From positions 61,795 through 125,794 of the forward strand of contig CAIYLG010000019.1 in assembly GCA_903927025.1 (NCBI GenBank): 64,000 bases of DNA, in the 5' to 3' direction. This document shows, in pieces, positions 9,880-62,077 of the stretch; within the stretch, counting starts at the first letter, position 1; every line of letters starts with the position of its first letter. Below the pieces are notes generated by a model. The model did not search any database and was not told the origin of the DNA. It worked only from the letters and a program-made list of their open reading frames with translations. A program made the translations under genes and the position numbers. Source of the DNA: an uncultured Armatimonadota bacterium. Its GTDB lineage: Bacteria; Armatimonadota; Fimbriimonadia; Fimbriimonadales; Fimbriimonadaceae.

Positions 9880-11378
9880 CTGCCGATCGCTGGGGCGAGA
9901 TGATAGTACAGCTCGTTCCAGCGCAGTTCATTGCGGTACGTGTCCAAATTGGTGTTTTTGTCGATCACCACGATTTCGATGCCGGCAATCTCGGCAAAGT
10001 CCCGCATGTGCGCCGTCGTCACCGAGTAGCTGTAACCGGTATGGTGCGCTCCGCCTGAATAGATCCACGCCGCCAAGGCAGTCTTAAAGCTCGGCTCGCA
10101 CTCCCACAGCGCACGCGCAACAGGCAACTTGGGCAGAGGCTGAGTTGGGGCTACCGCGTTGACCTCATTGATGATCAATCGGAACCGGTTGCCCAAATCG
10201 ACCAGTGATGCGTTGATGGCCGGCCCTGTTTGGGCATCGAACACGAGGCGGACAGGATCAGACTTGCCGCCAATTCCCAGAGGATGAATCTCCAGCTTTG
10301 GCTTGTGGCTGGCGATGGTTGGGCAGATCTCCAGCATGTGAGCACCCAGTACCTGCGGGTGGGCTGGGTCCATGTGATAGGTGTAGTCCTCCATAAAGGA
10401 CGTGCCGCCGCCAATGCCCTCTCCCACCTGCTTCATAAAGCGCAGGAGAGCCGCCGTCTTCCAGTCACCTTCCGCACCAAATCCATACCCCTTCGCCATT
10501 AGCCGCTGGGAAGCGAGACCGGGAAGCTGGTCGAGACCGTGGAGGTCTTCAAACGTGGTGGTGAAGCCCTTGAATCCACCCGATTTAAGGAACGACTCAA
10601 TGCCGAGCTCCTGTCTAGCGCCGTAGCGTAGCGCCTCATGCCGTGCGCCTCCTTTACGGAGTTCGGGAGACACATCGTAAATCTCTTCGTACTCGGCGGA
10701 CAACGCGTCGATATCGGCATCGGAGACACCGTTGAGTACCTTCACGAGGTCGCCGACACCGTAGCCGTTGACGGAGAACCCGAACTTGATCTCTGCGGAA
10801 ACTTTGTTGCCTTCGGTAACGGAAACCTCGCGCATGTTGTCTCCGAAGCGGCAGAAACGTCCGCCCTGGAGGTCATGCCATGCGCGGACCACACGGGTCC
10901 ATGCCCCGAGACTCGCAAGGGTTTCTGAGTCCGACCAGTGACCCACCACGACCTTTCGAGGCAGCCGCAGGCGGGTGTGCAGGAACCCGGCCTCTCGGTC
11001 TCCATGGGCAGCCTGGTTGAGGTTCATGAAGTCCATATCGATCTCCGACCAGGGCAGATCGCGATTGAACTGGGTATGGAGGTGCGCCACCGGTTTTTTC
11101 AGTGAGGTAAGGCCGCCGATCCACATCTTGGCGGGGGAGAAGGTGTGCATCCAAAGGATGAGGCCCGCGCAGTTGGGTGAAGAGTTTGCCTCGATGCAAA
11201 GGCTGCGCACGGCGGCAGGATCCGTGAGCACCGGCTTGAATACGACCTTAAGCGGAATCTCAGGCGCGGCATCCAGCGCTGCCGCAATCTTTTGCGAGTT
11301 GACAGCGACCTGCCGAAGAGTCTCGTCTCCGTAGAGATGCTGACTGCCAGTGACAAACCAAACTTCGATGCATTCCAT
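9876..11378 (-). CDS. araA: L-arabinose isomerase
   Basis: [74 protein letters not shown]; start trimmed to 11378. Confidence 0.95.
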
Positions 11379-48159: not shown

Positions 48160-48614
48160 GCCAATATCTTAATGCTACTTTCTACAAAAACCTAAGATGA
48201 TTTTTCTCCTTTAGCCAGGTTCTTAACGTATCGCACGAAAGATTTGGCGGCAGAATGCTGGCTTACGGTCTTCTCGTTCTATTCCTATCGTCTGTCCTGA
48301 GGGTTCTGCCTACGGGAGTGGGGTTTGTACGACGGGTGCCATCGAGCTTGAGATTCGAGGAAACCGAAACGCATGTTCATGGCTTGCCCCAAGCGGTTGG
48401 GTCGTCCAGCCAGTTGGCCAATCGAATTACTTTCAAGCGAGAAAACTGGTGGCATCGACTCCTTCTCCTGCCCGCGGAGGGAGAAGGTAGGTTGAGAGTG
48501 GAGCTGACAGGCATTCCCGACGAAGGCGGGGTCCGTTACAAGACGCCTTGCCGTGCTCAACTGAGCGTGGGATTCCAAACCAGGCGGCCGGCTAATTCTT
48601 TAACGGGATGGTCT

Positions 48615-48635
48615 TAGGCTAAATACCCGCGCGCC
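48615..48635 (-). repeat. Possible degenerate fourth copy of the GGCGCGCGG..ATTTA hairpin core
   Basis: Minus strand GGCGCGCGGGTATTTAGCCTA; stem imperfect. Confidence 0.35.
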
Positions 48636-49957: not shown

Positions 49958-51767
49958 GCTCCCCGCCTAAATAGACCCACTCGGTTGCGGACTGAAAGTC
50001 CTCCGGCTTGGCAAAGTAGATATGCTCAAACCGCTGGGGATTGAGGTCCGCGAGGGGAAACCAGGAAGACTGAACTTGGACCATGATGCGGTGACCCTTC
50101 TTAAACGTATGGAAGACGTCTCGTAGTTCAAACGGAACGTGAGTGATCCGACCCGGCACAAATGGCTCTGGCTTTTCTAAACTGTTGCGAAACTTTCCGC
50201 GCATGATTTCACCGCGCACCAGCATCTGGTAGCCAGCCATCCTCACCGGCGGCGTTACCTTGGCGTTGGGTGCCGCATCACTGGGATACTCGTCGATCAC
50301 CTTAACGACAAAGTCAGAGTCAGTCCCCGTCGTCGCCACCCAGAGGTCAGCCTGGATAGGCCCCGCAAACGTGGTGTCCTTGTCCAGCACCGGGGTTTCG
50401 TAGGAGAGAACGTCTGAACGGGACCAGGCAAATCTCTGGTCGCCAGTCATAAACGCAGGGCTCACCCCCGTGGTGACCTCGGCGGTGTACGGGACGGGTC
50501 GTCGCGGGTCGCTTACATACGTATCAACGGCGCTCTTTCCAGACTTTGGATTCAATACACCACTCGGTTGGAAATACAGTGTGCTCGGCTTAGCGGTCTT
50601 TGGCGGCCAGGCGTCAAAGGTCTTCCACACGTTTTCACCTGTCTGGAAAACAATCGCTTTCGGAAGGTTCGGCGACTTGCCGTCCTTCAGATAGTGGTTA
50701 AAGAATGGAAGTTCCACCTGGTCTCGAAGATAGGGGCTTGTCTTCTGGTCGAATTCGATGGCCCCCATCCGCTCGCCATCTCCCCCAGCCCAGCCACCAT
50801 GAGACCACGGCCCCATCACGAGCGTCGCGGGTTCCACGGCTTCTGTAGACGCAGACTTGCCCGTGTCAATCGACTTGAAGGTTTTGAGCGCCCCAAATAG
50901 ATCCTCTGCATCAAACCACCCTCCCACCACCAACGTGGCCGGCTTGACTGCCTTCAGGTGCTGCTCCATGCCTCTTGGCTTCCAATAGGCGTCGTAGGTG
51001 CCGTGAGACATGATCTGCTCCCAGAACATATTTCGATGCTTGAAGTAGGTTTGGAGGCGATCCAAAGGCTCGTTGTCGAGGAAGAATCGATACGAGTCCT
51101 GAATCGGCCACTTGAAGCCATGTCCGTACGTTTTGGATGGAATCGGATGAGGCCAGCCAAATCCCCAAAGGAACGAGAACCGCTGGGCAAGGAAGAATGC
51201 GCCGTTGTGGTGGTCATCGTCCCCCACAAACCGATCCGTCACCGGCGCCTGAGGCGAGGCGCACTTTAGGGCAGGGTGTGCGTTGACCAACGCATTGGAA
51301 GCATAAAATCCTGGTTGGGAGATGCCCCAGATTCCAGCCTTGCCATTGTTGTTCGGAACGTTCTTGAGGAGCCATTCTATGGTGTCGTAGGCATCGGTGG
51401 TTTCGTCCACATCTTTCGCCGTCCGCTTAATCGGGTTCACGGGGGGCGAAAACCGGTGATGCCCTTCCGACATATAGCGCCCCCGCACGTCCTGATTGAC
51501 AAAGATAAACCGCTCCTTCGGGAAGGCCGGCGTCGGCCCCAGACTGCGCGGATAGGCCGCCGGCCCGTACGGCGCACAGCTGTAAGGAGTGCGCTGAATC
51601 AAAAACGGCAACCGCTCCGCCGTGCGCTTTGGAGTGTAGATCGCCGTGTAAAGCCCCTCCCCATCCCGCATCGGCACCATCACTTCCCGCTTCGTATACT
51701 CCGCCCGGAGGTCAAACACAGGCTGCGCCTGGGCAACGGAGATAAGGAGAGCAAGGGCAAAAGGCAT
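49926..51767 (-). CDS. CocE/NonD-family hydrolase (X-Pro dipeptidyl-peptidase-like)
   Basis: VMVPMRDGEGLYTAIYTPK; NQDVRGRYMSEG; GKAGIWGISQPGFYAS; MGPWSHGGW. Confidence 0.9.
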   Translation of the reverse strand: MPFALALLISVAQAQPVFDLRAEYTKREVMVPMRDGEGLYTAIYTPKRTAERLPFLIQRTPYSCAPYGPAAYPRSLGPTPAFPKERFIFVNQDVRGRYMSEGHHRFSPPVNPIKRTAKDVDETTDAYDTIEWLLKNVPNNNGKAGIWGISQPGFYASNALVNAHPALKCASPQAPVTDRFVGDDDHHNGAFFLAQRFSFLWGFGWPHPIPSKTYGHGFKWPIQDSYRFFLDNEPLDRLQTYFKHRNMFWEQIMSHGTYDAYWKPRGMEQHLKAVKPATLVVGGWFDAEDLFGALKTFKSIDTGKSASTEAVEPATLVMGPWSHGGWAGGDGERMGAIEFDQKTSPYLRDQVELPFFNHYLKDGKSPNLPKAIVFQTGENVWKTFDAWPPKTAKPSTLYFQPSGVLNPKSGKSAVDTYVSDPRRPVPYTAEVTTGVSPAFMTGDQRFAWSRSDVLSYETPVLDKDTTFAGPIQADLWVATTGTDSDFVVKVIDEYPSDAAPNAKVTPPVRMAGYQMLVRGEIMRGKFRNSLEKPEPFVPGRITHVPFELRDVFHTFKKGHRIMVQVQSSWFPLADLNPQRFEHIYFAKPEDFQSATEWVYLGGEHASAIHFLTL

Positions 51768-51858
51768 TGGAGAAGGGGTATTTCGTCAAGAGGGTCCAGT
51801 TTTCCTGCCTGGGGCAGCGCGAGCATCACCCGTACAACCCTGACGGGGTTGACGAGAT

Positions 51859-53045
51859 TGTCCAATTGCGATAGCTCATTCCCGGGTCACGGCCTTGCGG
51901 ATCGGCTCCCTCCACCGCCTCCTGTGGCGGTGGAGGGCTTGGGGAGGGGGTGGCGGACTCTGCGCGTTGCCGACGCAGTCGGCGTCCCTATTCGTCTGGA
52001 AATCGCGAGATTCCAATCAAGTCGGCAACAGGGGCGCGTGTGCCTTCGCCAATCTGTCCCTCAGCCGCCTAACCGCTGTTGTGTCGGATAGGCAATCCGG
52101 CCGCTTACCTTGGGTCGCAAGGACGTCCAACCGAATCAACCCCAACGCGGGTTGCCGAAAATGTCCAATTGCGATAGCTCATTCCCGGGTCACGGACTTG
52201 CGGATCGGCTCCCTCCACCGCCTCGTGTGGCGGGCTGGAGGGCTTGGGGAGGGGGTGGCGGACTCTCGGCGTTGCCGACGCAGTCGGCGTCCCTATCCGT
52301 CTGGAAATCGCGAGATTCCAATCAAGTCGGCAACAGGGGCGTGTGTGCTTTCGCCAATCTGTCCCTGAGCCGCCCACCCGCTGTTGTTTCGGATCGGTAT
52401 CGCCCCCAACCTCAAAGAAGTTGCCTCTGCATAGCCCAACGGTTAGGCGCTCCGGCGGCTTACCTTGGGTCGCCAGGGCGTCCAACCACCTCAACCTCAG
52501 CGCGGGCTACCTCACCGGAAACCTTCTTCATGACCGCATATCCCGGAAGTCAACCCCTTCAGGGTTGGAAGGTTGGTTGCCTCCGAACCCAAGGTAGCCC
52601 GCGCTTCACGCGTGCAACCGTTGGGCTATACAGAGGGAAGCCCTTCAGGCTTGGGGCTGTCGGCTGTTGCATGGACTTCGCATGCTTCCAACCCCAACGC
52701 GGGTTGCCGAAAATGTCCAATTGCGATCGCTCATTCCCGGGTCACGGCCTCGCGGATCGGGTCCCTCCACCGCCTCGTGTGGCGGGCTGGAGGGCTTGGG
52801 GAGGGGGTGGCGGACTGTGAGCGTTGCCGACGCAGTCGGCGTCCCTATTCGTCTGGAAATCGCGAGATTCCAATCAAGTCGGCAACAGGGGCGCGTGTGC
52901 TTTCGCCAATTTGTCCCTGAGCCGCCCACCCGCTGTTGTTTCGGATCGGTATCGCCCCCAACCTCAAAGAGGTTGCCTCTGCATAGCCCAACGGTTAGGC
53001 GCTCCGGCGGCTTACCTTGGGTCGCAAGGACGTCCAGCCAAATCA
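51859..53045. repeat. Three long direct repeats of structured non-coding DNA plus one inverted sub-element
   Basis: Units begin tgtccaattgcgat[a/c]gctcattcccgggtcacgg at 51859, 52162 and 52714; share ccctccaccgcc...ggaggg, gccgacgcagtcggc and tggaaatcgcgagattcca hairpins. Confidence 0.85.
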
Positions 53046-53074
53046 ACCCCAAAGAGGGTTATCTCTCTGGCTAG

Positions 53075-53275
53075 CTAAAGCTCTATCTTTTGGCGCTTCT
53101 TTCTGACATCAAGATAGTAATAGACAGCTTCCAGGCCGATCGCGACCAAACACCCAAGGGCAGCCATACGGCGCAAGCTATTGAGATATCCAAAATCGGT
53201 GGCAAGAATGATCAGCAAGCTCACAAGAGTAATCAATGCAGGAACTTTCCGCCTCAGGTTTCTTCTAGGCGTCAT
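53075..53275 (-). CDS. Small hypothetical membrane protein
   Basis: MTPRRNLRRKVPALITLVSLLIILATDFGYLNSLRRMAALGCLVAIGLEAVYYYLDV, two TM, ATGA overlap with the upstream ORF. Confidence 0.5.
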   Translation of the reverse strand: MTPRRNLRRKVPALITLVSLLIILATDFGYLNSLRRMAALGCLVAIGLEAVYYYLDVRKKRQKIEL

Positions 53276-53553
53276 TTTGCGGCACGACCTACAATCTTGG
53301 CCATCCAAATCCAAGCCCATATGAGAATGCCTAGGCACGCGGCTGTGACAAGGATTGCTGAATGCGGCTGACTGGGGTGGTTCAAGTTAATGAGCCTAGT
53401 AATAAAGCTAAAAGCAAACAAGCCCATCGCCTTGCTAACGCCCTTGGCACCATCAGAGTTGAGCCCTGTATAAACAGCGAAGGCGAAGCAAGCGCCAAAA
53501 TAGACCCAGATGCACAGGAGAGAGAACTGCTGAATTGTTGGCACCATCAGCAT
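53272..53553 (-). CDS. Small hypothetical membrane protein
   Basis: 93 aa with three hydrophobic segments. Confidence 0.5.
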   Translation of the reverse strand: MLMVPTIQQFSLLCIWVYFGACFAFAVYTGLNSDGAKGVSKAMGLFAFSFITRLINLNHPSQPHSAILVTAACLGILIWAWIWMAKIVGRAAK

Positions 53554-53637
53554 CCCTCTTCCTCTTCCTCTTCCTTTTCCTTTTCTGCAGTCGAATTCAT
53601 GGAGCCATATGTATCATACAGCGGTCAGTTCGCTGAC

Positions 53638-54310
53638 GTCGAGCCAGTTGAGTTCGACTTGCTCACACGCATTCCATCGGCACGGTAGACGTAGCTCGTT
53701 GTGTCTGAAGACGTGAACGAGGTCATTCGGTTGAGGATGTCGTTCGTGACCGTTGTTCCGCCAAGGCTCGTGGCACGGTTCAGATTGTCGGTTACCACGT
53801 CATTTCGGTTCCCCGCCGCATCGTAGCTCCAGGTTGGGCTTGCAGTGGCAAGACCATCTCCATAGGAGGCGGCAGTCAGGTAGTCGAGCTAGGCGTCATA
53901 GCCATAAGTATTCGTCTGGGAAGTTGTCCAGCTCGCCGAGCCTGCAGTTGTTGCCGTCTTGTAGAACAAATCGGTCTTCGCTCCAAAGGTTCAGGGCCGA
54001 ATACTCTTAATCGCACGCCTGGCCGACCATGGCCTGGCTTGTATAGGTGTTGCCGGATCCCAAGATGTCCCAGTAGTGGCCGAGCCAGGTCACCTGCCCT
54101 GCGGCGTCGTATTCGTAGCGAGCTCTCGCCCTCGTCTGAGCCTCGTAGCCATCATAGTATCCGCTGGAATCCGGCGTCAAGTTGGAGGGTGTTTGGGCGA
54201 AGGCCGCTTCGAAGAGTCTCCCTTGCCGGTCGTAGGCATAAAATGGAACTCATCCTGAGTCCTGTTGCCGCTGCTGTCCAGCTTGCAGAGCGTCAGGAAC
54301 GCGTGGGCGC
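53638..54310 (-). pseudogene. RHS/YD-repeat core relic (copy A)
   Basis: Nucleotide-level similarity to 57610..58215 and 61400..62060 but with in-frame TAG (53889-53891), 48-nt deletion at 53734-53741 and +2 insertion near 54240. Confidence 0.85.
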
Positions 54311-54774: not shown

Positions 54775-55563
54775 TTAATCTCCACTTGCGTCGTTTCGGT
54801 TGCGTGCCGCATCGTAGCTCCAGGTTGGGCTGGCGTTGGCGAGGCCATCTCCGTAGCTCGCCGCAGTCAGGTAGTCGAACTTCGGATCGTAGCCGCATGT
54901 GTCCGTCTGGGATGTGGTCCAGGATGCAGAGCCGGGCGTGCTCGCCGTCTTGTAGACCGAGTCCGTCTTCACCCCACGGCTGGGTGCTGTGGTTGATAGC
55001 TCACAGTCGCATGCCTGGCCAATGATGGCCCAGCTGGTGTAGGTGTTGCCGGTTCCCAAAGTGTCCCAATAGTGGCCGAGCCATGTCATGCGGCCGCCGG
55101 CGTCGTACTCGTAGTGTGCCCTCGCCCTAGTCGCAGCCTCATAGCCATCATAGTATCCGCTCGAATCGGGAGTCAAGTTTGATGGCGTCTGTGCGAATGT
55201 CGCTTCGAAAAGCCTTTCCTGCTGGTCGTAGGCGTAATGGAACTCCTCTCCGGTCCGATTTCCGCTTGCTTCGAGCTTACACAGCGTCTGGAACGCATGA
55301 GCGCTCTTGCTGTGGCTGCCGATGCTCAGGTAGTCGTAGTAGCCCCATGATGCGAGAAGGATTCCAGGTGAATCGGGACCCTGGTAGTACTTGGCGGCTA
55401 TCCGGTCTTCGCTTGGACCATAGAAGTAGTCGCAGGTGGTGTCGACAGTGCCGCCGCGGATCTCCTTGATGGAGAAGGGCTGACCGGCTCCTGATCCGGT
55501 CGCGCCGTTACAGCTGATATCCAGCTCCACGCCAGAGAGATTGTCGACAATGCTGGTGATCAT
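54775..55563 (-). CDS. Truncated RHS/YD-repeat protein (copy B)
   Basis: [47 protein letters not shown]...GDGLANASPTWSYDAARNRNDASGD*; stops where the homologues continue. Confidence 0.75.
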   Translation of the reverse strand: MITSIVDNLSGVELDISCNGATGSGAGQPFSIKEIRGGTVDTTCDYFYGPSEDRIAAKYYQGPDSPGILLASWGYYDYLSIGSHSKSAHAFQTLCKLEASGNRTGEEFHYAYDQQERLFEATFAQTPSNLTPDSSGYYDGYEAATRARAHYEYDAGGRMTWLGHYWDTLGTGNTYTSWAIIGQACDCELSTTAPSRGVKTDSVYKTASTPGSASWTTSQTDTCGYDPKFDYLTAASYGDGLANASPTWSYDAARNRNDASGD

Positions 55564-56775: not shown

Positions 56776-58317
56776 CTAAGTCGTCATTAGCAAACAGAGC
56801 CTTTCCGTGGCGTATACGCTCGTTCCGATGATTGCCGACTGTGCAAGTCCGCCACACTCTTGCGCCGTCATTGCTCCATTAAGTATAGACTTAAAAGTAT
56901 TAAGATACCCGGTGCAGGTGAGTGCCATTGCCGATAATCCAAATCCGCTAAAGCAAAAACCTACATTAAGGTTGCTGAGAAATGCCCCTGATCCATTCTC
57001 GATGAAACCGCCCAGCAACTGAATTGATAGTCCAATAATCTGGCCAACCCTTCCTGAGGACGCGACCATTAGCACAATACCAATTAGTACGAGACACCAG
57101 CCACCTATCAAGACCGCGACCCCGGATAACTGCTGATTATTTGGTGTTGTGTCCTTGCCAGTTGATTCAATGTTGTCTACCGGATTATCGTTTGCGTATT
57201 CAAACAAATTCATTCCAGACATTGCCGGGTCCTCTGAAACGAACCGCCCGCTAACCGCCTCATGGAACCGGGCTCTCATGTAGACCAGCCCTGACTCCTC
57301 GACCTGCTTGTGCCCTAGGCTTGCATAAAAGCGTCCTTTCGGATCGCTTGCCTGAGCTCCCCGTCGAATCGAGCCCCAAGCGTCGAACGTGCGCAGTGCG
57401 GAAGAGGCGAATCCGCCAGTCCCCGGCTTCGTCAGGGTCGAAATCATGTTCCCGTGAGCATCGTAAATCGGATAATTTGCCGAAGTTGAACCATTCTGCG
57501 TGACGAATACCACATCGATATCACGTGGACCAATTCCGTAGTCGGTGACCCTAGAGACAGTTCCATTGGAGGCAAAATCGATATCCTCCATCCCCATCTG
57601 CCCGTCGTACCGGTAGCTGGTCGAGCCCGTCGAGTTCGACTTGCTCACACGCATGCCGTCGGCACGGTAGACATAGCTCGTTGTGCCTGACGACGTGAAC
57701 GACGTCAACCGGTTGAGGATGTCCCAGCCATAGGAGGCGGTTCCCTTCGTGAGACGGTTCCCCAGGATGTCGCTTGTAACCGTACTTCCTCCGAGGCTCG
57801 TGGCACGATTCAGATTGTCACGTACAGCGTCGTTTCGGTTCCCCTCCGCATCGTAGTTCCAGGTTGGGCTCGCATTGGCAAGGCCGTCGCCGTAGCTGGC
57901 GGCGGTCAGGTAAGCGAGGCTAGCGTCATAGCCGTACGTATCTGTCTGGGAGGTCGACCAGGCCGCCGAACCCGGAGTCGTTGCCGTCTTGTAGATCGCG
58001 TCCGTTCTAACACCACGGTTCGTGCCTGTAGTCTCATAGGCGCACGCCTGGCCGACGATGGCCTGGCTGGTGTATGTGTTGCCGGTTCCCAAGGTGTCCC
58101 AATAGTGGCCGAGCCACGTCAGTCGCCCCGCGCCGTCGTACTCGTAGTGAGTTCGCGCTCTGGTCTGAGCCTCGTACCCATCATAGTATCCGCTCGAATC
58201 TGGCGTCAAGTTGGAGTGCATAGGGGAACTATGGTGGGCAATACCCAAATTCCCCTCTACGGAGGGGTGGACGGCGAAGCCGGACGGGGTGGTCTCCGGA
58301 AAGTTGGAGGTTTCCAC
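56776..58317 (-). CDS. RHS repeat-associated core protein with variable hydrophobic C-terminal tip (copy C, 5' truncated)
   Basis: GLVYMRARFHEAVSGRFVSEDPAMSGMNLFEYANDNPVDNIESTGKD hallmark; real homology begins at about 58215, upstream codons lie in REP-like DNA. Confidence 0.85.
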   Translation of the reverse strand: METSNFPETTPSGFAVHPSVEGNLGIAHHSSPMHSNLTPDSSGYYDGYEAQTRARTHYEYDGAGRLTWLGHYWDTLGTGNTYTSQAIVGQACAYETTGTNRGVRTDAIYKTATTPGSAAWSTSQTDTYGYDASLAYLTAASYGDGLANASPTWNYDAEGNRNDAVRDNLNRATSLGGSTVTSDILGNRLTKGTASYGWDILNRLTSFTSSGTTSYVYRADGMRVSKSNSTGSTSYRYDGQMGMEDIDFASNGTVSRVTDYGIGPRDIDVVFVTQNGSTSANYPIYDAHGNMISTLTKPGTGGFASSALRTFDAWGSIRRGAQASDPKGRFYASLGHKQVEESGLVYMRARFHEAVSGRFVSEDPAMSGMNLFEYANDNPVDNIESTGKDTTPNNQQLSGVAVLIGGWCLVLIGIVLMVASSGRVGQIIGLSIQLLGGFIENGSGAFLSNLNVGFCFSGFGLSAMALTCTGYLNTFKSILNGAMTAQECGGLAQSAIIGTSVYATERLCLLMTT

Positions 58318-60541: not shown

Positions 60542-62077
60542 TTACTCACCCAGTGCTATGTCAGACAGCCAAAGCTCTTCAGACATAGTTCTGAGTTGCA
60601 GCCTACCTAGCGCTCCACATTCTACGAAATTTGCGGTCGCCATCATTGCCGCCCCTTCGGCTATATCTGCAGCTTCTTGGGCGGCAAGTTTAAATGGGCC
60701 ATCAGGAAGACTGTCGGCAGCTTGTTGATTTTGCTCCCATAGTTTATTTTGCCGAGCTGCTTCCTCTCCATTGCCAGCTTGATATTCCAAGATAAGCTTT
60801 TCCACGTCTTCTTCCAAGAAGTCAAGGGCCATTGCTATCGAACCACCTGGCAACGTCGAAAGGAGCTGAGCCTCCGCGAAAAGTGTCTGCAAGTCCACAG
60901 ATAACTGAGCCACTGTGAAATCCCATCCACTTCCGTCAACCAACCCAGTAGGGCAATTGCCGCAATAGCCAAACAGATTTTTGCCACCACGAGCTGAATC
61001 TTGACTAATGAATCTGTCTGACCCAGGTTCATTAGTATCTGGCCTTCATATAGATGAAACCAGATTCGTCGTCCTGCTTATGCCCAAGACTGGCACAATA
61101 GCGCCCCTTGGGATCTCCGGTTGCAGAGCCACGGCGAATGACACCCCATGCATCAAACGTCCGGACCGCTGCATACCCAAACCCACCTGTTCCCTGCCTG
61201 GTCAGAGTGGAAATCATATTTCCGTGAGCGTCGTAAAGCGGATAGCTGGCTGACATTGTCCCGCTCTGGGTCACGAACATGGCGTCGATGCCTCTTGGCC
61301 CAATACCGTAATCGGTTACCTTCGAACCTGTGCCGTTAGAGGCGAAGTCGATGTCCTCCATCCCCATCTGTCCATCGTATCGATACGACGTCGATCCGCT
61401 GGAATTCGACTTGGTGACCCGCATTCCGTCGGCACGGTAAATGTAGTTCGTGACTCCCGATGACGACGTGGACGACGTCATACGGTTGAGGATGTCCCAG
61501 CCGCAGGTCGTGGAACCCTTGGTGATCCTGTTCCCAAGGATGTCGTTCGTCACCGTTGCACCGCCGAGGCTTGTGGCGCGATTGAGATTATCGGTCACGG
61601 CGTCGTTTCGGTTTCCAGCCGCATCGTAGCTCCAGGTTGGGCTGGCGCCCGCGAGGCCGTCTCCGTAGCTGGCGGCGGTCAAATAGTCGAGCTGGGCGTC
61701 GTAGGCATACGTGTCCGTCTGGGGGGTAGTCCAAGACGCCGATCCGGGTGTAGTTGCGGTCTTGTATACCGAGTCGGACTTAACGCCACGGTTCAAGACC
61801 GAAACTTCATAATCGCACGACTGGCCAATGATCGCCTGACTCGAATAGGTGTTGCCGGTTCCCAAGGTGTCCCAATAGTGGCCGAGCCACGTCAATCGGC
61901 CCGTGCCGTCGTCCTCGTAGTGAGCTCGCGCCCTCGTCTGAGCCTCGTACCCATCACAGTATCCGCTAGAATCTGGCGTCAAGTTGGAGGGAGTCTGGGC
62001 GAATGTCGCCTCGTAGAGGCGTCCCTGCTGGTCGTTTGCGGAATGGAACTCCTACTGCGTCCTGTTGCCACTATTGC
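60542..62077 (-). pseudogene. RHS core plus tip (copy D), split by +1 frameshift and carrying an in-frame TAG
   Basis: 61032..61982 ends GFIYMKARY*; removing one T at 61032-61033 gives ARYYEPGSDRFISQDSARGGKNLFGYCGNCPTGLVDGSG, joining the 60542..60943 ORF; TAG at 62052-62054. Confidence 0.85.

What the first reader, a model, noticed from the sequence alone, without database searches (positions are those of the whole stretch)
51859..53045. Three long, highly structured non-coding direct repeats at the entrance to the toxin array
Seen: units at 51859, 52162 and 52714 (roughly 230-330 bp) share at least three conserved hairpins: CCCTCCACCGCC..GG(C)GG..GGAGGG, GCCGAC-gca-GTCGGC, and TGGAAATC-GCGA-GATTCCA capped by a GNRA-type loop. 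Differences in the first stem between units 1 and 2/3 keep most pairing. ORFs called here on both strands are low-complexity by-products. This could be a structured RNA or a recombination/attachment element.
Basis: partly seen in the sequence, partly recalled or inferred. Interest (0 to 1): 0.6.

Follow-up and report, generated by a model that had tools for sequence, protein, structure and literature searches.

The report
Dispersed triplex-type palindromic DNA repeats
The three repeats are local copies of a dispersed family of short, self-folding DNA elements scattered between genes across this genome, built like the DNA-triplex repeats already known from E. coli, rather than a new structured RNA or attachment site.

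Summary
The three repeats are real: units at 51859, 52162 and 52714 are about 94% identical. They are not a local RNA or att array. Their core is a hairpin plus G-rich tail, CCCTCCACCGCC-loop-GGCGG(GC)TGGAGGG-spacer-GGGGAGGGGGTGGCGGA. The tail occurs 55 times in this genome, against 5 for a reversed control. Many copies form inverted A/B pairs or alternating +/- arrays, several at contig ends. The tail is a mirror image of the hairpin's purine arm (12 of 12 bases, one 3-nt insertion, p about 0.002). That is the plan of the purine-motif intrastrand triplex repeats of E. coli, which also pair as inverted type A plus type B (PMC4666352). Similar inverted pairs occur in Deltaproteobacteria and Devosia. 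A second module (52085, 52440, 52992) resembles the palindrome flanking an IS200-like transposase gene in the same genome. There is no Rfam match. Only hairpin 2 shows convincing two-sided changes, probably few events; hairpin 3 is no more stable than chance. The mobiliser is unknown. Verdict: a BIME-like family of a known kind, new in sequence; triplex formation untested.

The parts
   Evidence: the repeat finder D1; blastn
52137..52688 (+). repeat unit 2 (552 bp), with an additional inverted copy of part of module 2
   Evidence: the repeat finder D1, I1, I2
52689..53062 (+). repeat unit 3
   Evidence: the repeat finder D1
51908..51937 (+). hairpin 1 of unit 1: pyrimidine arm 51908-51919, purine arm 51926-51937, 12 bp perfect
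   Evidence: I11; DNA fold z -2.9
51942..51956 (+). G-rich tail GGGAGGGGGTGGCGG of unit 1, mirror image of the purine arm: candidate third strand of an intrastrand triplex
   Evidence: nearly invariant in genomic copies
52211..52261 (+). type A core of unit 2: arms 52211-52222 / 52229-52242 (2-nt insertion), tail 52247-52261
52763..52813 (+). type A core of unit 3: arms 52763-52774 / 52781-52794 (2-nt insertion), tail 52799-52813
51969..51983 (.). central hairpin GCCGAC-gca-GTCGGC of unit 1 (52274-52288 in unit 2, 52826-52840 in unit 3); CCCGGC/GCCGGG in most other genomic copies
   Evidence: 97.7% cells paired, two pairs changed on both sides
   Evidence: 40% paired; z -0.8
52045..52069 (-). 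decayed inverted partner (type B end) of unit 1; equivalents at 52350-52374 and 52902-52926
   Evidence: aligned with intact B ends of other copies
52085..52153 (+). module 2 of unit 1 (further copies 52440-52508 and 52992-53060; inverted arm 52616-52656): palindrome GGTTAGGCGCTCCGGCGGCTTACC plus AACCCC..GGGTT hairpin
   Evidence: D2, I1 and I2; 94% over 31 nt to the arm flanking an IS200-like tnpA on contig C58

Best explanation
A dispersed non-coding repeat family, BIME-like in arrangement and intrastrand-triplex-like in sequence. Each complete element is two related ends (type A and type B) in inverted orientation, separated by a fixed stretch that holds a short central hairpin. Each end is a pyrimidine arm, a purine arm and a G-rich tail that mirrors the purine arm, so the G-rich strand can fold as a hairpin whose tail lies antiparallel in the major groove. 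Shown: copies, inverted pairing, fixed spacing, mirror relation and conservation pattern. Inferred: that single-stranded ends fold during replication, that elements were multiplied by an enzyme acting on folded single strands (an HUH/Y1-type nuclease is most likely, none identified), and that repeats then duplicated locally by recombination, giving the three units here. In this window the A ends survive, the B ends have decayed, and the element sits next to a second palindromic module related to the ends of an IS200-like transposase gene. Most likely a selfish or passive repeat with side effects (fork stalling, rearrangement, transcript ends), not a dedicated functional RNA.
For: 55 tail matches with up to 2 mismatches against 5 for the reversed control pattern. 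Alternating +-+- arrays on C1, C41, C44, C47 and C66, several ending at contig ends. The A to B' distance is 89 nt in all six pairs the strict pattern recognised. Types A and B differ consistently in spacer (TG/CTTG against CTCA/CCA) and mostly in tail end (GCGAA against GCGGA). Mirror match 12/12, p 0.0018; the triplex detector gives 2 hits in the window and 0 on average in shuffles. Purine arm 0.97 and tail 0.97 mean identity against 0.91 for the pyrimidine arm, whose middle positions vary. Similar inverted pairs in unrelated bacteria: of 104 pattern matches 45 have a stem and 24 of these an inverted partner; in two Deltaproteobacteria nearly all A ends have a B' start about 50 bp away. TM_ECO precedent: same order of parts, A+B inverted pairs, triplex shown by CD/NMR in vitro (PMC4666352).
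Against: No transposase gene is bracketed by the G-rich element: the four Y1_Tnp genes of this genome have their own different flanking repeats, and no bracketing was seen in the sampled relatives and carrier genomes. One hit close to such a gene, in L299, has other repeats next to the gene. Units 2 and 3 have a 2-nt insertion in the purine arm and an imperfect hairpin, and the tail needs a 3-nt insertion to mirror the arm. Arm and tail contain C and T, which weaken a purine-motif triplex. No empty site could be examined because relatives are only about 70% identical.
Confidence: 0.72

Rival explanations
1. Ordinary REP/BIME system of this genome: palindromes spread by a RAYT, with the G-rich tail incidental.
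For: Two genes pass the NCBIfam cut-off for REP-associated tyrosine transposase; alternating arrays as in BIMEs (PMC2817692); a G-rich array lies about 1.5 kb from one RAYT gene on C66; module 2 resembles IS200-like tnpA flanks.
Against: Both RAYT genes are flanked by other inverted repeats; the G-rich element has no GTAG-type tag at its hairpin foot in the copies read; the tail is more conserved than the pyrimidine arm, which a plain palindrome would not predict.
Confidence: 0.35
2. The conserved G-strand acts as a G-quadruplex (or protein-recognised G tract), not a triplex.
For: Purine arm and tail carry several G runs and are the most conserved parts; Holder et al. had to exclude a quadruplex by NMR for TM_ECO.
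Against: The pyrimidine arm is kept in nearly all copies, which a quadruplex does not need; the tail mirrors the arm including its A, T and C positions; only three runs of at least three G are present in the arm plus tail of unit 1.
Confidence: 0.25
3. A structured non-coding RNA or 3'-end/terminator element transcribed with the neighbouring genes.
For: The 303-nt unit folds better than shuffles; hairpin 2 keeps pairing through two-sided changes; the long ORFs on both sides lie on the minus strand.
Against: No Rfam match; both strands fold alike; hairpin 3 is not conserved; the two-sided changes in hairpin 2 sit in one subtype (units 1-3, C39, C7, C34), so probably one or two events; both orientations occur in arrays.
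Confidence: 0.08
4. A local recombination or attachment array linked to the RHS-type gene array.
For: Direct repeats next to truncated RHS-like copies.
Against: Copies occur on more than 15 contigs with different neighbouring ORFs.
Confidence: 0.04

Closest known systems
TM_ECO / PIT intrastrand triplex motifs (Holder et al. 2015, PMC4666352; earlier Hoyne et al., cited there)
   Same: Order pyrimidine arm, purine arm, antiparallel purine tail; G/C-rich; intergenic; two spacer types that pair as inverted A+B; copy number varies strongly between relatives.
   Different: Arms of 12-14 nt with C and T interruptions instead of 9 nt; 3-nt insertion in the tail; a longer dimer of about 215 bp with a central hairpin; different sequence.
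BIME / REPIN arrays of REP palindromes with RAYT (PMC2817692, PMC3116915)
   Same: Dispersed intergenic palindromes, inverted pairs, alternating arrays, presumed non-autonomous.
   Different: No GTAG-type tag seen, no flanked RAYT found, and an extra G-rich tail inside each end.
CGTC-tagged REPs (Di Nocera et al. 2013, PMC3733652)
   Same: Palindromic dimers that lack a dedicated transposase.
   Different: Different sequence; stems of 8-9 bp in that family; no mirrored G-rich tail in the sections read.
Inverted repeats flanking IS200-like tnpA or TIRYT genes (PMC3733652; contigs C58 and C41 of this genome)
   Same: Module 2 shares the palindrome GGTTAG.CGCTCC.GCGGCTTACC with the C58 tnpA flanks.
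   Different: In the window it flanks no transposase and is joined to the G-rich element.

Membership tests
Intrastrand triplex motif (general purine-motif class) | Pyrimidine arm, purine arm and a third purine strand mirroring the purine arm | tested here: met
   Unit 1: 12/12 pairs and 12/12 mirror with one 3-nt insertion, p 0.0018; units 2 and 3 imperfect.
TM_ECO | Sequence CCCTCNCCC-N3-6-GGGNGAGGG-N3-GGGNGAGGG | tested here: not met
   Window cores are CCCTCCACCGCC..., by direct reading.
TM_ECO | Type A and type B paired in inverted orientation | tested here: met
   in the window itself the B end is decayed.
TM_ECO | Stable triplex in vitro | not testable with these tools
   Needs CD/NMR.
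REP/BIME | Dispersed intergenic palindromes in alternating orientation | tested here: met
REP/BIME (GTAG) | GTAG-type tetranucleotide at the foot of the palindrome | tested here: not met
   Outer feet read mostly GGCT and GGTT in types A and B.
REP/BIME | Cognate RAYT gene flanked by the repeat | tested here: not met
   All four Y1_Tnp genes in this assembly have other flanking repeats; arrays break the assembly, so a missed gene is possible.
Known RNA family | Match to an Rfam model | tested here: not met
   cmscan of 51500-53600, no match up to E = 1.
IS200-like tnpA flanking repeats (module 2) | Shared palindrome with the inverted arms around a tnpA gene | tested here: met
   94% over 31 nt, E 5e-6, to C58; arms 11047-11106 / 11761-11820 of L050.

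The most novel reading that the evidence does not exclude
A phylum-crossing family of non-autonomous mobile dimers whose inverted ends are recognised as folded intrastrand triplexes by a still unidentified single-strand nuclease, which would give the long-known bacterial triplex repeats a mechanism of spread.
Probability: 0.12. Interest if true: 0.65.

Novelty: new variant of a known kind. Interest (0 to 1): 0.3.

Why it matters
The finding is mainly useful as a correction: a locus that looks like a structured RNA is a dispersed repeat family that also breaks the assembly. It extends the known bacterial intrastrand-triplex repeats to another sequence form. The fixed A/B' dimer seen here and in Deltaproteobacteria suggests that the unit of spread is the inverted pair, which can be tested. 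Who moves these repeats is an open question.

Tried and rejected
Rfam search of the region: nothing. Plasmid and phage collections: no match. Relatives: only a few weak matches, in one same-genus genome (2 places) and two more distant ones (1 each), among 60 searched; the same-genus loci have a comparable hairpin plus GGGAGGGGGTG layout. Empty-site comparison failed because relatives are too diverged. Y1 transposase genes of relatives and of carrier genomes checked for the motif in their flanks: no bracketing found. Hairpin 3 rejected as a conserved structure. The second detector hit at 48476 lies inside an ORF (48255-48617) and was not pursued.

Full report
Observation. In register they start at 51832, 52137 and 52689. 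Hairpin 1 is perfect in unit 1 only; hairpin 2 is sound; hairpin 3 does not beat shuffled sequence and is not kept in related copies. The ORFs listed over the repeats on both strands look like by-products of the repeats.

Genome-wide copies. A blastn search of the host genome with unit 1 gave 55 matches on many contigs. The tail GGGAGGGGGTGGCGGA gave 55 matches with up to 2 mismatches, against 5 for the reversed pattern; a few of the weaker ones lie in genes and are probably chance. Read in context, most copies share one plan: pyrimidine arm, loop, purine arm, short spacer, G-rich tail. They fall into type A (spacer TG or CTTG, tail end mostly GCGAA) and type B (spacer CTCA or CCA, tail end mostly GCGGA). 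A and B often face each other with 89 nt between the tails, with a central hairpin CCCGGC/GCCGGG or GCCGAC/GTCGGC. Arrays alternate in orientation, and several run into contig ends. The window units are type A ends followed by a decayed B end.

Structure. The tail of unit 1 is the mirror image of its purine arm, 12 of 12 bases with one 3-nt insertion; permuted tails reach this in 0.18% of cases. A detector for arm, arm and third strand found two places in the window and none on average in shuffles; one is unit 1, the other lies in an ORF. Across 22 copies the purine arm and tail are almost invariant while the middle of the pyrimidine arm varies. This is more than a plain palindrome needs, and fits a triplex, a quadruplex or a protein that reads the G strand. 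Hairpin 2 shows two-sided changes at two pairs, but the changed rows belong to one subtype, so this is few events; covariation cannot separate RNA from DNA palindromes here.

Second module. Segments at 52085, 52440 and 52992 carry the palindrome GGTTAGGCGCTCCGGCGGCTTACC or a close variant, which matches the inverted arms around an IS200-like transposase gene on contig C58 at 94% over 31 nt. The window locus is therefore a mosaic of two palindromic repeat types, duplicated locally.

Known relatives. Holder et al. 2015 (PMC4666352) describe TM_ECO, with the same order of parts, intergenic, in inverted A+B pairs, shown to form a triplex in vitro and associated with instability; triplex formation in vivo was not clearly shown there. 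The consensus sequence differs from ours. A scan of public genomes with the G-rich core found matches in many phyla; 45 of 104 have an adjacent stem and 24 an inverted partner. In two Deltaproteobacteria nearly every A end has a B' partner starting about 50 bp away.

Mobiliser. Four Y1_Tnp genes are in the assembly: two RAYTs, one protein over the IS200 cut-off and one just below it. Each is bracketed by other inverted repeats. No bracketing by the G-rich element was found in sampled relatives or carrier genomes. Di Nocera et al. (PMC3733652) note a similar lack of transposase for CGTC repeats.

Judgement. The identification as a dispersed, inverted-pair repeat family is firm. The triplex plan is well supported by sequence but untested in solution. 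Mobility and mobiliser are inferred. A host function is not needed to explain the data.

Noticed in passing
window 53634-54186, 54778-55182, 56776-58317, 61035-61988 (minus strand): Four copies of one RHS-type core (74-79% amino-acid identity to the copy at 56776); the copy at 53634-54186 is split over two frames, so the repeats lie beside a broken RHS remnant.
   Followed up: partly
L037 (contig C41) 1420-2960: An IS200-like transposase gene bracketed by many copies of another palindromic repeat (CTACCCCGGCAGGGGTTG...) whose layout resembles module 2 of the window.
   Followed up: partly
L040 (contig C66) 4230-5360 and L050 (contig C58) 1150-2180: Two RAYT genes, each with its own inverted flanking repeats, giving four separate Y1-gene and repeat pairings in one genome.
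   Followed up: partly
L042 (contig C34) 2540-3180: A chimeric pair: one end of the window family facing an end of the type CCCTCNCCCTCGTGAGGGAGAGGGTGGGGTGAGGG, close to the E. coli TM_ECO form.
   Followed up: no
L086 and L088 (same-genus genome G004): A diverged family with a comparable layout, GCCCTCCACCGCG...CGGGCGGAGGGTCGGGAGGGGGTGA, suggesting rapid turnover between species.
   Followed up: no
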